Origin: an uncultured Owenweeksia sp.
GTDB taxonomy: Bacteria > Bacteroidota > Bacteroidia > Flavobacteriales > Schleiferiaceae
Assembly: GCA_937146805.1 (NCBI GenBank)
Contig: CAKZRR010000028.1
Span: 1 to 64,000 of the forward strand
Length of the DNA: 64,000 nucleotides
Reading direction: 5' to 3'
Part shown: positions 37,938-41,819 of the stretch, one piece after another
How the letters are laid out: each line of letters opens with the position of its first letter
How positions within the stretch are numbered: the stretch's first letter is position 1
Position numbers and translations under genes: made by a program
The notes under the pieces: generated by a model
What the model was told of the DNA's origin: nothing
Database searches by the model: none
What the model saw: the letters and a program-made list of their open reading frames with translations, nothing else

Positions 37938-39188
37938 ATGAAAGTTTTCAAATTTGGAGGTGCATCGGTAAAAGATGCGGGTAGCGTGCGAAATGTAGCG
38001 CGTGTATTAGGTTGTTTTCCGGGTGAGGAGATACTGATTATAGTATCGGCTATGGGAAAAACTACCAATACTTTAGAGCAATTGGTGCAATTGGTTTTTG
38101 AAGGAAAAGCAGGTTCACAAGAAATTATTGACCAACTCCGAAAACAGCATTTTGATATTATTAAGGAACTTTTTCCGGCAGATGAGCACCGTGTTTACAA
38201 TGATGTGGAAATTCTATTTACGCAGTTAGAATTAACGGTACAGGCTACTCAGGTAACGGATTATAATAAACTGTACGATCAATTGGTCTCTTTTGGCGAA
38301 CTGGTTTCCACCAAAATAATTTCGAGCTTTTTAAACAGCACCAATTATCAAAATAAATGGCTGGATGCCAGAAGACTAGTGCGTACAGATCAAAATTATC
38401 GTTTTGCACGGGTTGATTGGGCCTTTACCGAAAGATTGGTAAAAGAAACCATTACTCCGGGTAACCGTTATGTTACGCAGGGTTTTATTGGTTCCGATGA
38501 TGATTTTAATCCCACCACCTTGGGCCGCGAAGGTTCCGATTATTCGGCTTCGGTATTTGGTTATATTTTGGAGGCAGAAGAGGTAGTAATTTGGAAAGAT
38601 GTACCTGGGGTGTTAAATGGCGATCCTAAGATTTTTGATAATGTAGAGTTGCTGCATCAAATAAGTTACCGCGAGGCTATTGAGCTGGCTTATTTTGGAG
38701 CATCGGTTATTCATCCCAAAACTATTCAGCCACTGCAAAAAAAGAGTATCCCGCTAAGGGTGCAATCTTTTTTAAACCCAAGCCAGCCCGGTACTTTAAT
38801 TACCGAGGGCAGTGATTTAACACCGCTGTTGCCCTGCTTTATTAAAAAGGATAAGCAGGTACTTTTAACGGTTGCCACCCGAGATTTAGCTTTTATTGTG
38901 GAGGATCATTTAAGTAAAATTTACAAGCTGTTTCACCAATTTGGTGTGCGGGTTAATTTGACCCAAAATACAGCTGTGAGTTCTTCTTTTTGCATTAATC
39001 ACGATCCTATAATTACACCTAAGCTGATGGAGGCCTTGAGTGAAGATTTTAGCACCTCGTATAACGATAAAGTCACACTATACTCGGTACGCCATTATAC
39101 TGATGCTGCGAAACAGCGGGTACGTAAATCTGGGGAGGTGCTACTGGAGCAAATTAGTAGAAATACCTACCAAGTGGCTACGGTGTAA
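37938..39188 (+). CDS. lysC: Aspartokinase
   Basis: A 416-residue monofunctional aspartate kinase. It phosphorylates aspartate as the first step to lysine, methionine and threonine. N-terminal KFGGASVKDAG (about 4-14) is the ATP/aspartate motif, followed by GREGSDYSASVFGYIL (about 195-210) and DPKIFDNVELLHQISYREAIELAYFGASVIHPKTIQP (about 229-266). Regulatory ACT-like repeats fill the C-terminus. The last 43 bases of the gene recur at 40180-40222 beyond the KilA-N gene, so this 3' end is an integration site. Reading the distant copy instead would change one residue (Ala to Val). Confidence 0.92.
   Translation: MKVFKFGGASVKDAGSVRNVARVLGCFPGEEILIIVSAMGKTTNTLEQLVQLVFEGKAGSQEIIDQLRKQHFDIIKELFPADEHRVYNDVEILFTQLELTVQATQVTDYNKLYDQLVSFGELVSTKIISSFLNSTNYQNKWLDARRLVRTDQNYRFARVDWAFTERLVKETITPGNRYVTQGFIGSDDDFNPTTLGREGSDYSASVFGYILEAEEVVIWKDVPGVLNGDPKIFDNVELLHQISYREAIELAYFGASVIHPKTIQPLQKKSIPLRVQSFLNPSQPGTLITEGSDLTPLLPCFIKKDKQVLLTVATRDLAFIVEDHLSKIYKLFHQFGVRVNLTQNTAVSSSFCINHDPIITPKLMEALSEDFSTSYNDKVTLYSVRHYTDAAKQRVRKSGEVLLEQISRNTYQVATV
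39145..39187 (+). repeat. Direct repeat, copy 1 (3' end of lysC)
   Basis: The last 14 codons of lysC. It is 42/43 identical to copy 2 at 40180-40222, the single difference being C versus T in the codon GCT/GTT. Same orientation. Together they flank the KilA-N segment like attL and attR of an integrated element. Confidence 0.85.
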
Positions 39189-39202
39189 ATACTTTTGAGG
39201 TG

Positions 39203-40090
39203 TTAATTTCGCTTCTTGTTTTGGGCTTCAATAAAAGTTGCTTCTGAATTCTTTTTTAGAGATTTAATAATATCGATATCGTTCAGTGAGGTTTTTTGTT
39301 CCTGAACGGTTTCAATTAAAATTTTAAGTCTGTTTTTCCGGTTGATGTTGTTTTTTATAAGCGTGGAGTTCAAGCTTTCAATATTTGAAAGTATAGCTAG
39401 CTCATTAATACTGGCCATGTCTCTAATATTTTCACCCTGCAATACTCTTGTGGGGTTAGAACCTTTCCATTGCTTCGCGGTACATCCAAATAAGGCAATA
39501 TTTAAAAGGTCAGCTTCAGTGGCATATTCTAACCATTTTTTAGCCTCATTATATCCAGTTTTTGGAATAATGTATTTTTTAACGGCATCTGTGTGAACCT
39601 TGTAATTGGTTTTACTTAAAATTCGCCTAACATTCCATTCTAAGCTGTATTTATTAGACTCAACTTCTTTTAATCGTTGGTATTCCTTTATTACATGTAG
39701 CTTAAAAACTGGACTAATGGCTGTTCCAAATTCAAAAGCTATATCTCGATGAGCATAGGTGCCCCCATATCTCCCTTTAATGGAAAACAAACCTTTTGCA
39801 GCAGTAGATTCTACCCAGTTGGTAACGCTCATTGTGAAGGTAGGAAGGCCAGCTTCTTTTCTAAAGTGGTCGAATTCGACCACTTTAAAATCAGCGTTGT
39901 ATAAGGATTCCCAAGTCCCTAGAAATTCTATCGTTGATCGGTTTCTAATCCAGTTTTTAATAACATCCGCTGCCCGGCTACCATCTTTTTTTCCATCCAC
40001 CATATCGGTTAAGCAGATATAATCTTCTTCCTTAAACGAGGCCACTTTTATTTTGGTTCCTTGTACTGTTATAGTATTTGTTTTAGCCAT
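39203..40090 (-). CDS. KilA-N domain protein
   Basis: A 295-residue protein with a KilA-N DNA-binding domain in the N-terminal half. Diagnostic blocks: FKEEDYICLTDM (about 19-30), ADVIKNWIRNRSTIEFLGTWE (about 41-61), VVEFDHFRKEAG (about 71-82), WVESTAAKGLFSIKGRYGGTYAHRDIAFEFG (about 92-122), and FKLHVIKEYQRLKE (about 127-140). The C-terminal half is a helical region of unknown role. KilA-N proteins are typical of phages and mobile elements and bind DNA. The gene is antiparallel to lysC within a segment bounded by 43-bp direct repeats. It contains a perfect 26-bp palindrome in its coding sequence. Confidence 0.9.
   Translation of the reverse strand: MAKTNTITVQGTKIKVASFKEEDYICLTDMVDGKKDGSRAADVIKNWIRNRSTIEFLGTWESLYNADFKVVEFDHFRKEAGLPTFTMSVTNWVESTAAKGLFSIKGRYGGTYAHRDIAFEFGTAISPVFKLHVIKEYQRLKEVESNKYSLEWNVRRILSKTNYKVHTDAVKKYIIPKTGYNEAKKWLEYATEADLLNIALFGCTAKQWKGSNPTRVLQGENIRDMASINELAILSNIESLNSTLIKNNINRKNRLKILIETVQEQKTSLNDIDIIKSLKKNSEATFIEAQNKKRN
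39862..39887. repeat. Perfect 26-bp palindrome inside KilA-N coding sequence
   Basis: Half-site TAAAGTGGTCGAA meets its own reverse complement with no spacer. On the coding strand the central 24 bases spell KVVEFDHF. Because of the symmetry the same peptide is also read on the opposite strand. A perfect dyad of this length within a conserved domain is unexpected and may be a binding or recombination site. Confidence 0.75.
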
Positions 40091-40110
40091 TAATCAGTTA
40101 GTTGTAAATT

Positions 40111-40178
40111 AGATAGACACTTCCTATTTTCTATTGTAAGTCAAATTTAGTCGGTTCTATTGTATTTAGATGACACTT
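40111..40178. repeat. Paired short direct repeats in KilA-N upstream region
   Basis: TTCTATTGTA occurs at 40129-40138 and 40155-40164. AGATAGACACTT (40111-40122) and AGATGACACTT (40168-40178) form a second pair outside them. The arrangement lies between the KilA-N start and the element boundary, where regulator or recombinase sites would be. Confidence 0.5.
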
Positions 40179-40179
40179 T

Positions 40180-40222
40180 TGGAGCAAATTAGTAGAAATA
40201 CCTACCAAGTGGTTACGGTGTA
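40180..40222 (+). repeat. Direct repeat, copy 2 (duplicate lysC end)
   Basis: A 43-bp near copy of the lysC 3' end in the same orientation, complete with its stop codon (TAG here instead of TAA). It lies in the gap before the gene at 40256 and is not part of an intact reading frame. Confidence 0.85.
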
Positions 40223-40255
40223 GTATTATTAGTATTTTCGGCAAAAATTAAAGTT

Positions 40256-40885
40256 ATGAAGCAATTGTTTTTCTGTGGTTTTGCGATGGTTTTGTTTTCG
40301 TTTGGCGCTGTGGCGCAAGAACGAGCGGTTACCGAAGAGGGGGAGGAAGTAGTATTGTACCGAGATGGTACTTGGAAATATGTGAATGATGAAGACAAAC
40401 CAAAAAAAATTAAAACCAACGCTAAGAAGTTTGAAAAGGCTGCGACTTCCAGTTTTTTAGTGAAATGCTCAAAGGTGAATTTTGGAATATATATCAATCC
40501 AAAAGATTGGACTTTTACAAAAGGGGAAGGAGGCGCGGAGTATGATTTCGTTAAGAAGGGAGATGATATTTATGGTATGCTGATTACCGAAACTTTGGAA
40601 ATTCCTTTGGAGTCGTTAAAAGATATTGCTATTGAGAATGCTCGTTCTGCAGCACCGGATTTACGAGTGGTAGAAGAAGAGTATAGGATGGTGAATGGTA
40701 TTAAGGTGTTAATGATGAAGATGGTTGGAACCATCCAAGGAATTGAGTTTGCCTATTTGGGGTATTACTATTCCAATAGTTCAGGTTCATGCCAGTTTAT
40801 TACTTATTCAGGAGTATCTATTTTAGAGCAAAACAAAGAGCAGTGTGAGCTATTGCTTAATGGTTTTGTGGAGTTGAATAAGTAG
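40256..40885 (+). CDS. Hypothetical secreted protein
   Basis: A 209-residue protein with a signal peptide ending at AVAQ (about residue 21). The mature N-terminus contains VTEEGEEVVLYRDGTWKYV (about 25-43), a pattern recurrent in secreted Bacteroidota proteins, and the rest is a mixed alpha/beta domain with DWTFTKGEG and GYYYSNSSGSCQFITYSG. Two cysteines (about 71 and 183) could form a disulfide. Possibly a periplasmic or surface protein; no known family assigned. It follows the KilA-N element directly, and its promoter region may have been rearranged by that insertion. Confidence 0.7.
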   Translation: MKQLFFCGFAMVLFSFGAVAQERAVTEEGEEVVLYRDGTWKYVNDEDKPKKIKTNAKKFEKAATSSFLVKCSKVNFGIYINPKDWTFTKGEGGAEYDFVKKGDDIYGMLITETLEIPLESLKDIAIENARSAAPDLRVVEEEYRMVNGIKVLMMKMVGTIQGIEFAYLGYYYSNSSGSCQFITYSGVSILEQNKEQCELLLNGFVELNK

Positions 40886-40913
40886 CTATTAATACTGAAA
40901 ACACTTTCACTCC

Positions 40914-41819
40914 TTGAAAAAATTTGACGGCCTAGCTTGGCTGCTATTTCTAGCTTTAGCCCTTACATGGGGCAGTTCCTTTATTTTAATGAAGTACGGT
41001 CTACAGAGTTTCTCGTACAGCCAAATTGGGATGATACGAATTGCTTGCGCTTTTTGGTTTACCCTAATCTTTGCTTTTAGGCGCTATGCTCGTATTCGCA
41101 GAAAGGATTTATTGCCCCTTTTGGTAGTGGGCTTAATGGGGAATGCCATACCGTATTTATTATTCCCGTTGGCCGTGAGCCATTTAGATAGTGGCGTGGT
41201 AGGAGTGCTAAATGCCACCGTACCCTTGTTTACTTTATTAATTGGAATAGCGGTTTTTAAGACCAAGGTAGGCTGGCAAAGTATGTTGGGTATAGGTTTG
41301 GGACTTACCGGTGCGTTACTACTGTTATTGCCCGGTATTCAGGTAGATATGAGTAATTTAAGCTATAGCTTATATCCCATTATAGCTACGCTGTGTTACG
41401 CCACCTCCATTAATACTACCAGTGCCCGTTTGCTACATTTAGATTCACTTACCATCACCTTAGTTTCACTCACCTTTGTGGGTTTACCAGCCACGGTGTA
41501 TGTATTTAGCACCGATTTTTTAGACATACTGGCCAACGATCCAAAGGGTATGACGCACTTTGGGTATGTGCTAATATTGGCTATTTGCGGCACCAGTTTA
41601 GCTGCCATTGTTTTTAACTATTTAATTAAGAGAAGTGGCTCTCTTTTTAGCGCTTCGGTTACGTACGTAATTCCTATTGTAGCGCTATTTTGGGGTTTAT
41701 TAGATGGCGAAGAAATGGGCTGGTACCATGTGTTTGGAATGGTCGCCATTTTGGTAGGTGTATATATTGTAAACTACCGCAAAAAATTTAGAGATCAAAA
41801 AAAAGCGGCAAACTCCTAG
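40914..41819 (+). CDS. DMT (EamA) family transporter
   Basis: A 301-residue inner-membrane protein with ten hydrophobic segments arranged as two EamA repeats (about 5-140 and 150-290). Typical blocks: WGSSFILMKYGL (about 20-31), GVVGVLNATVPLFTLLIGI (about 93-111) and SASVTYVIPIVALFWGLLDGEE (about 246-267). Exports amino acids or other metabolites by family analogy. The start is a TTG at 40914, as no ATG precedes the first membrane helix. Its last codons are part of the terminator hairpin for the convergent M16 operon. Confidence 0.85.
   Translation: MKKFDGLAWLLFLALALTWGSSFILMKYGLQSFSYSQIGMIRIACAFWFTLIFAFRRYARIRRKDLLPLLVVGLMGNAIPYLLFPLAVSHLDSGVVGVLNATVPLFTLLIGIAVFKTKVGWQSMLGIGLGLTGALLLLLPGIQVDMSNLSYSLYPIIATLCYATSINTTSARLLHLDSLTITLVSLTFVGLPATVYVFSTDFLDILANDPKGMTHFGYVLILAICGTSLAAIVFNYLIKRSGSLFSASVTYVIPIVALFWGLLDGEEMGWYHVFGMVAILVGVYIVNYRKKFRDQKKAANS

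What the first reader, a model, noticed from the sequence alone, without database searches (positions are those of the whole stretch)
39145..40222. KilA-N gene inserted at the lysC 3' end between 43-bp direct repeats
Seen: the final 43 bases of lysC (39145-39187) recur in the same orientation at 40180-40222 with one mismatch, and the ~1 kb between holds only a KilA-N gene on the opposite strand. Established: integrative elements often insert in the 3' end of a conserved gene and carry a copy that restores it; KilA-N domains are typical of phages and mobile elements. Inference: a very small element using the aspartokinase end as an attachment site. With no recombinase of its own it is either a decayed remnant or a hitchhiker mobilised by something else.
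Basis: partly seen in the sequence, partly recalled or inferred. Interest (0 to 1): 0.75.

Follow-up and report, generated by a model that had tools for sequence, protein, structure and literature searches.

The report
Defence-candidate gene carrying its own tag
A lone bacterial gene inserted beside lysC encodes a DNA-binding protein whose apparent binding site lies inside its own coding sequence, and bare copies of that site turn up in viruses that lack the gene, which suggests a phage-defence gene with a built-in 'self' tag that phages have copied.

Summary
The repeat is real: 43 bp, one mismatch, two copies in the genome. A congener has lysC without KilA-N or repeat, so the gene was inserted. 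Flanking repeats recur around homologs (5 of 62 other cellular loci, 1 of 1,660 control intervals) but often not at gene ends, so 'attachment site' is only partly supported.

The bigger result lies inside the gene. Codons 68-77 form a 30-bp DNA palindrome, present in 171 of 181 homologs. Its arms vary (40 types) yet stay complementary, far beyond codon chance, and co-vary with the HTH recognition helix (partial Mantel r 0.68, 0/2000 permutations): the protein very probably reads its own gene. In 395 Bacteroidota genomes all 5 copies lie in KilA-N genes; in viral contigs 118 of 121 places have no KilA-N nearby, and 47 of 50 whole records lack the gene. Two matched control palindromes gave no hit.

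The protein is PADLOC's defence candidate PDC-S22. The closest known logic is BstA with its in-gene DNA element aba, without sequence homology. Best reading: single-gene defence with a self tag that phages mimic. Binding, defence and immunity are untested.

The parts
37938..39188 (+). lysC (aspartokinase), intact, 416 aa
   Evidence: PF00696 E 1.1e-40; single copy, syntenic in relatives
39145..39187 (+). direct repeat copy 1, inside the lysC 3' end (QVATV, TAA stop)
39203..40090 (-). KilA-N protein, 295 aa, PADLOC candidate single-gene defence PDC-S22
   Evidence: PF04383 5.8e-18; phrog_2657 1.3e-51; PDC-S22 7.4e-117
39944..39973 (-). codons 40-49: recognition helix of the HTH, co-varies with the palindrome arms
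   Evidence: AlphaFold helix 40-49; covariation
39860..39889 (-). in-frame 30-bp palindrome TTTAAAGTGGTCGAATTCGACCACTTTAGA (encodes FKVVEFDHFR); perfect 24-bp core 39863-39886, unique in the genome
40180..40222 (+). direct repeat copy 2, displaced lysC end (QVVTV, TAG stop), probably ancestral
40256..40885 (+). 209-aa protein of unknown family, next host gene; absent from this site in G003
40914..41819 (+). DMT-type permease, syntenic neighbour of lysC in G003

Best explanation
The gene is a horizontally mobile, single-gene phage-defence element that carries its own DNA self tag. Shown by sequence: its coding region contains a palindrome kept at the DNA level, and the palindrome's arms co-evolve with the protein's own recognition helix. 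In the cells sampled the site occurs only in such genes (plus, in some homologs, their promoter), while in viruses it occurs bare. Inferred: the protein binds the palindrome as a dimer; it suppresses replication of invading phage DNA, as BstA does; DNA carrying the cognate tag is spared because the tag binds and disarms the protein. Because the tag lies inside the ORF, any element that carries the gene is protected automatically, and specificity diversifies so that other tags do not work. Phages have picked up bare tags as a passport. The lysC direct repeat is a separate matter: the scar of this gene's insertion, in which 43 bp of target was duplicated or two alleles recombined.
For: Palindrome in the same frame and place in 114 of 119 homologous CDSs, and at least 12 of 15 pairs in 171 of 181. 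Arm complementarity 6.28/7 against 3.18 with shuffled halves (max of 2000 = 3.85); 13.1/15 pairs against 8.68 +- 0.16 under a synonymous-codon null; 12 of 72 distinct sites perfect against 0.006 expected. Mismatches in the arms (positions 7-12) are not enriched in G-T (6 of 39), so dsDNA rather than RNA. Arm distance co-varies with residues 41-52 (partial r 0.645), near zero for the C-terminal half and weaker for nearer flanks; residue 46 with base pair 11 nMI 0.89, residue 42 with base pair 10 0.80; partial Mantel 0.684, 0/2000 permutations, and the helix predicts arm bases at 84% (random 45%) from homologs at least 40% divergent elsewhere. The helix fits an APSES/Mbp1 wHTH (Z 8.2, 2.6 A, 87 aa). 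Copies per genome 0-2. Cells: 5 of 5 sites in KilA-N genes among 395 genomes. Viral contigs: GTGGTC type 118 of 121 and GGTGTC type 38 of 42 without KilA-N in the locus; 47 of 50 whole records lack the gene; 32 and 20 clusters of unrelated flanks; matched control palindromes 0 hits. PDC-S22. BstA precedent: KilA-N-like Abi protein with a DNA-based, cognate-specific in-gene immunity element (PMC8585504).
Against: No binding, defence or immunity has been measured. PDC-S22 is only a candidate. There is no detectable homology to BstA (hhalign probability 0.1%). The AlphaFold model is a monomer (pTM 0.64). Several homologs have a further palindrome 37-68 bp upstream of the ATG, as an operator would be, and in some it is of another arm type (L005, L147, L160, L162, L163). 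About 14 of 49 viral contexts have a flanking T run, so a terminator role is possible there, and two related groups hold about half of the viral places. Viral records may be fragments. Bare copies of the TATGGC type are few. Direct repeats flank only a minority of homologs.
Confidence: 0.55

Rival explanations
1. The palindrome is only an autoregulatory operator: the protein represses its own gene by binding inside it (roadblock), with extra copies in some promoters. The bare viral copies would be operators of regulators coded elsewhere.
For: Covariation with the recognition helix fits any self-binding regulator; promoter copies at -37 to -68 in several homologs; PHROG calls the family a transcriptional regulator.
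Against: Position about 200 bp into the ORF, kept even where the gene sits inside operons; arms diversify into about 40 types, which plain autoregulation does not call for; 47 of 50 viral records with bare sites have no such regulator.
Confidence: 0.2
2. The palindrome is what the protein hunts: a conserved phage DNA site that triggers defence, and the copy in the gene is a sensor or anchor.
For: The site is common in phages and absent from host DNA outside the gene in the sample.
Against: Viral copies lack a spanning ORF in 46 of 49 unrelated contexts, where phages could easily lose them; the defence gene itself would carry a trigger. In BstA the in-gene element protects rather than triggers (PMC8585504).
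Confidence: 0.15
3. For the repeat: a recombinase-free mini integrative element that uses the lysC 3' end as attachment site, mobilised in trans by an integrase of another element.
For: 43-bp repeat at the lysC end, empty site in a congener; copy 2 carries the ancestral variant, as after attP x attB exchange; L101 has three copies of a gene-3'-end repeat with two different cargo units.
Against: Homolog repeats are all different and often not at 3' ends; no third copy of the repeat in the genome; no lysC-end mimic in viral contigs; no duplicated lysC end in 88 family genomes.
Confidence: 0.2
4. The palindrome acts as an mRNA hairpin (attenuator or terminator stem) rather than as DNA.
For: It could fold with an AAUU loop; some viral copies are followed by T runs.
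Against: Mismatches in the arms are not biased to G-U (6 of 39); the arms co-vary with a DNA-recognition helix.
Confidence: 0.04

Closest known systems
BstA and its aba element (Owen et al. 2021, PMC8585504)
   Same: Single-gene protein of about 300 aa, two domains, KilA-N-like HTH domain in the N-terminal half; a short DNA element within its own gene; element specific to the cognate protein; carried by prophages
   Different: No detectable sequence similarity; aba is 63 bp over the start codon with terminal CCCGCC direct repeats, not a palindrome at codons 68-77; aba function is experimental, here it is inferred; bare copies in phages are shown here
PDC-S22, PADLOC phage-defence candidate
   Same: The window protein matches the model over its whole length (7.4e-117)
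   Different: Only a candidate name; I found no description of an in-gene palindrome or mechanism
KilA-N / APSES DNA-binding domains (PF04383, Mbp1, PCG2)
   Same: Same fold for residues 1-139 (1bm8 Z 8.2, 4ux5 Z 8.0)
   Different: The C-terminal helical region and the palindrome-coding segment are not part of Mbp1
DdrC of Deinococcus radiodurans
   Same: Closest whole-chain match: N-terminal wHTH plus C-terminal helical bundle (Z 11.7, rmsd 9.9)
   Different: High rmsd, 10% identity; no known in-gene site
Phage pac sites inside small-terminase genes (own knowledge)
   Same: A DNA-binding protein whose site lies in its own gene
   Different: No packaging context; arms co-diversify and occur bare in unrelated viruses

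Membership tests
PDC-S22 (PADLOC candidate) | match to the PDC-S22 profile over full length | tested here: met
   7.4e-117, residues 1-282 of 295 against profile 1-277 of 281
PDC-S22 (PADLOC candidate) | anti-phage activity | not testable with these tools
   no assay; the library itself lists it as a candidate
BstA | sequence homology to BstA | tested here: not met
   profile-profile comparison with BTP1 BstA, probability 0.1%; PADLOC and PHROG place the two in different families
BstA | KilA-N-type HTH domain in the N-terminal half of a two-domain protein | tested here: met
   BstA residues 32-147 (PMC8585504)
BstA | DNA element within its own gene, specific to the cognate protein | tested here: inconclusive
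   in-gene palindrome that co-varies with the recognition helix; immunity not measured
BstA | abortive infection, block of phage DNA replication | not testable with these tools
   needs plaque assays
Integrative element with attachment site in a gene 3' end | direct repeats at both ends, one restoring the host gene | tested here: met
Integrative element with attachment site in a gene 3' end | empty site in relatives | tested here: met
   G003 lysC - 468 bp - DMT - M16, single lysC end
Integrative element with attachment site in a gene 3' end | own recombinase within the unit | tested here: not met
   only the KilA-N ORF lies between the repeats
Integrative element with attachment site in a gene 3' end | related units also sit in gene 3' ends | tested here: not met
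   repeats at gene starts and intergenic sites in most DR-flanked homologs
KilA-N domain proteins (PF04383) | Pfam gathering score | tested here: met
   65.1 bits against 23.8

The most novel reading that the evidence does not exclude
A widespread single-gene defence family (bacteria, archaea, prophages, satellites) encodes its self-identity tag as a palindrome in its own coding sequence, read by the protein's own recognition helix; lock and key diversify together inside one ORF. Free phages collect bare tags as DNA passports, a DNA-only form of anti-defence.
Probability: 0.5. Interest if true: 0.93.

Novelty: new variant of a known kind. Interest (0 to 1): 0.85.

Why it matters
How BstA's aba DNA switches the protein off is stated as open in its paper. 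This family offers many natural lock-and-key pairs, with residues and base pairs matched by covariation, so the question becomes testable by helix and arm swaps. If the bare viral copies are passports, they are a DNA-only, non-protein kind of phage counter-defence that present anti-defence searches, which look for genes, would miss. It also gives a readable recognition code for KilA-N proteins and a likely reason why lone KilA-N genes are so mobile.

Tried and rejected
A search for lysC-end attachment mimics in viral contigs found none. Duplicated lysC ends in 88 family genomes: none but the window's. KilA-N next to lysC elsewhere: none in the loci held. A nuclease or recombinase fold in the C-terminal region: no such match; best hits DdrC and generic helical bundles; absence is not proof. 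RNA hairpin reading rejected for lack of G-U bias. Arrays of several tag types in one phage: looked for; only L352 and L410 have two types side by side, other pairs were single chance-level matches. BstA homology: not detected. A DNA search of annotated phages with one viral context gave no match. The first, looser control for flanking repeats (11 of 89 against 2.2% of intervals) included tandem gene copies, so a stricter one was used. L137 in the strict set has repeats in a repeat-rich region and is less clean. Papers on KilA-N with palindrome, operator or direct repeats: nothing relevant.

Full report
Observation. The repeat is as described: 39145-39187 and 40180-40222, 42 of 43 identical, same orientation, 1,035 bp apart. 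lysC itself ends at 39188. It is the only direct repeat of that score in the window, and the 43-mer occurs nowhere else in the 3.16-Mb genome at up to three mismatches. Between the copies is one intact 295-aa KilA-N gene on the minus strand.

Insertion. KilA-N homologs occur in 11 of 60 relatives (window's genome counted), at other loci. The congener G003 keeps lysC - DMT permease - M16 peptidase with 468 bp after lysC, no KilA-N and one lysC end; G001 and G002 have an unrelated gene there. lysC proteins of relatives mostly end in QVV or similar, so copy 2 (VVTV, TAG) looks ancestral and copy 1 (VATV, TAA) altered. So the gene was inserted. The stop codon alone does not settle polarity (G003 has TAA, G001 and G002 TAG).

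Are the repeats a rule? I fetched 80 cellular and 80 viral homolog loci. Counting repeats of at least 28 score units within 350 bp of the gene, 6 of 63 cellular loci (5 of 62 without the window) have one, against 1 of 1,660 control intervals in the same contigs; in viral contigs 1 of 66 against 0 of 1,623. Repeats are 35-95 bp and differ in each genome. They lie at gene 3' ends (window, L101), at gene starts (L137, L149) and between genes (L091, L120; L122 outside the strict set). At L149 the end of the mod gene is also repeated, which reads as recombination between a KilA-N-bearing and an empty allele. Site-specific integration at gene 3' ends is therefore not the general rule; duplication of target, or allele recombination, is the better inference. 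For the lysC case alone I cannot separate the two from an att-type event.

Palindrome inside the gene. Inspection of flanks showed AAAGTGGTCGAATTCGACCACTTT both upstream of some homologs and inside the coding sequence of the window gene. In 114 of 119 homologous CDSs a palindrome of 30 bp lies at the same codons in frame 0; with viral homologs, 171 of 181 have at least 12 of 15 complementary pairs. Amino acids change while the DNA stays palindromic: FKVVEFDHFK (GTGGTC/GACCAC), FKRIEFDAFK (CGCATC/GATGCG), FKLVEFDQFK, FNYTEFGIIK, FNYGEFAIIK, FKGVEFDTFK, FKPLEFERFK and others. Among 72 distinct sites with 40 distinct 7-nt arms, arm pairs are complementary in 6.28 of 7 positions against 3.18 with shuffled halves; the whole site scores 13.1 of 15 against 8.68 +- 0.16 if codons are redrawn for the same proteins; 12 sites are perfect against 0.006 expected. 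Mismatches in the arms are G-T no more often than chance (6 of 39), so the constraint is on double-stranded DNA, not RNA.

Who reads it? Across 133 non-redundant homologs the arm distance is correlated, after removing the rest of the protein, with residues 41-52 (partial r 0.645), far more than with the segments closer to the site (0.19 for 53-64, 0.32 for 81-92), and not with the C-terminal half. These residues are helix 40-49 of the model, the second helix of the HTH in a fold matching Mbp1 and PCG2. Residues 41, 42, 45, 46 and 49, one face of that helix, carry the signal: residue 46 with base pair 11 (N with T, D with G, K with C; nMI 0.89), residue 42 with base pair 10 (0.80), residue 45 with base pairs 8-9. 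A partial Mantel test gives r 0.684 with 0 of 2000 permutations reaching it, and the helix predicts arm bases at 84% from homologs at least 40% divergent elsewhere, against 45% at random and 36% from the C-terminal region. I take it as very likely (about 0.9) that the protein binds the palindrome in its own gene. Binding itself is not shown.

Where else is the site? In the window's genome the 24-mer occurs once, in the gene; in 20 genomes with homologs 0-2 times. In 395 Bacteroidota genomes drawn evenly over the phylum it occurs five times, each inside a KilA-N gene. In 50 whole records, up to 326 kb, 47 have no family member. The places fall in 32 and 20 clusters of unrelated flanks, 46 of 49 without a spanning ORF of 100 aa. 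Two palindromes of the same composition with reversed arms gave no hit in the same collection. Two records carry GTGGTC and TATGGC tags side by side (L352, L410).

Function. The protein is PADLOC's PDC-S22, a single-gene phage-defence candidate. A known system has the same logic: BstA, a KilA-N-like abortive-infection protein whose own gene contains aba, a DNA element that protects the phage carrying it and works only with its cognate BstA; how it works is stated as open (PMC8585504). There is no sequence homology between the two families, so this is not a BstA. The best explanation is therefore by analogy: a defence protein disarmed by its own tag, the tag sealed inside the gene, diversified so that foreign tags do not work, and copied bare by phages. 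The strong asymmetry, tag with gene in cells and tag without gene in viruses, fits this better than plain autoregulation. Shown: palindrome, DNA-level selection, covariation, distribution. Inferred: binding, defence, immunity, passport function. The rival that the site is a phage trigger rather than a passport cannot be excluded without plaque assays.

Limits.

Noticed in passing
L101:5694-8150: Three copies of the repeat from one gene's 3' end enclose two units in tandem: a KilA-N gene, then two unrelated small ORFs. Possibly an insertion hotspot that accretes single-gene units.
   Followed up: partly
L099, L102-L105, L107, L111, L117, L119, L122, L139, L147 (37-68 bp upstream of the KilA-N start codon): A second copy of the palindrome in the promoter region; in L005, L147, L160, L162 and L163 its arms differ from those of the in-gene palindrome.
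   Followed up: partly
L352:7465-7515 and L410:1412-1460: Two different tag types (GTGGTC and TATGGC) side by side in viral contigs without a KilA-N gene in the record.
   Followed up: partly
L149:5880-6920: KilA-N between mod and res genes with both the mod end and the res start repeated: looks like a hybrid of an occupied and an empty allele.
   Followed up: partly
window 39189-40913: The stretch between lysC and the DMT permease is a variable spot in the genus: KilA-N plus a 209-aa gene here, an acyltransferase-like gene in G001 and G002, 468 bp of repetitive non-coding DNA in G003.
   Followed up: partly
window 39203-40090 (protein): The whole-chain fold is closest to DdrC of Deinococcus, a DNA-break-binding protein; possible hint that the helical C-terminal half handles DNA ends.
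   Followed up: no
L012:1492-2684: KilA-N gene directly followed by a GxxExxY-type gene; L120 also has one next to KilA-N. Both are lone genes that travel widely.
   Followed up: no
L091:5640-7100: The repeat around the nearest homolog is a non-coding element resembling attC-like repeats, next to a PIN-domain gene.
   Followed up: no
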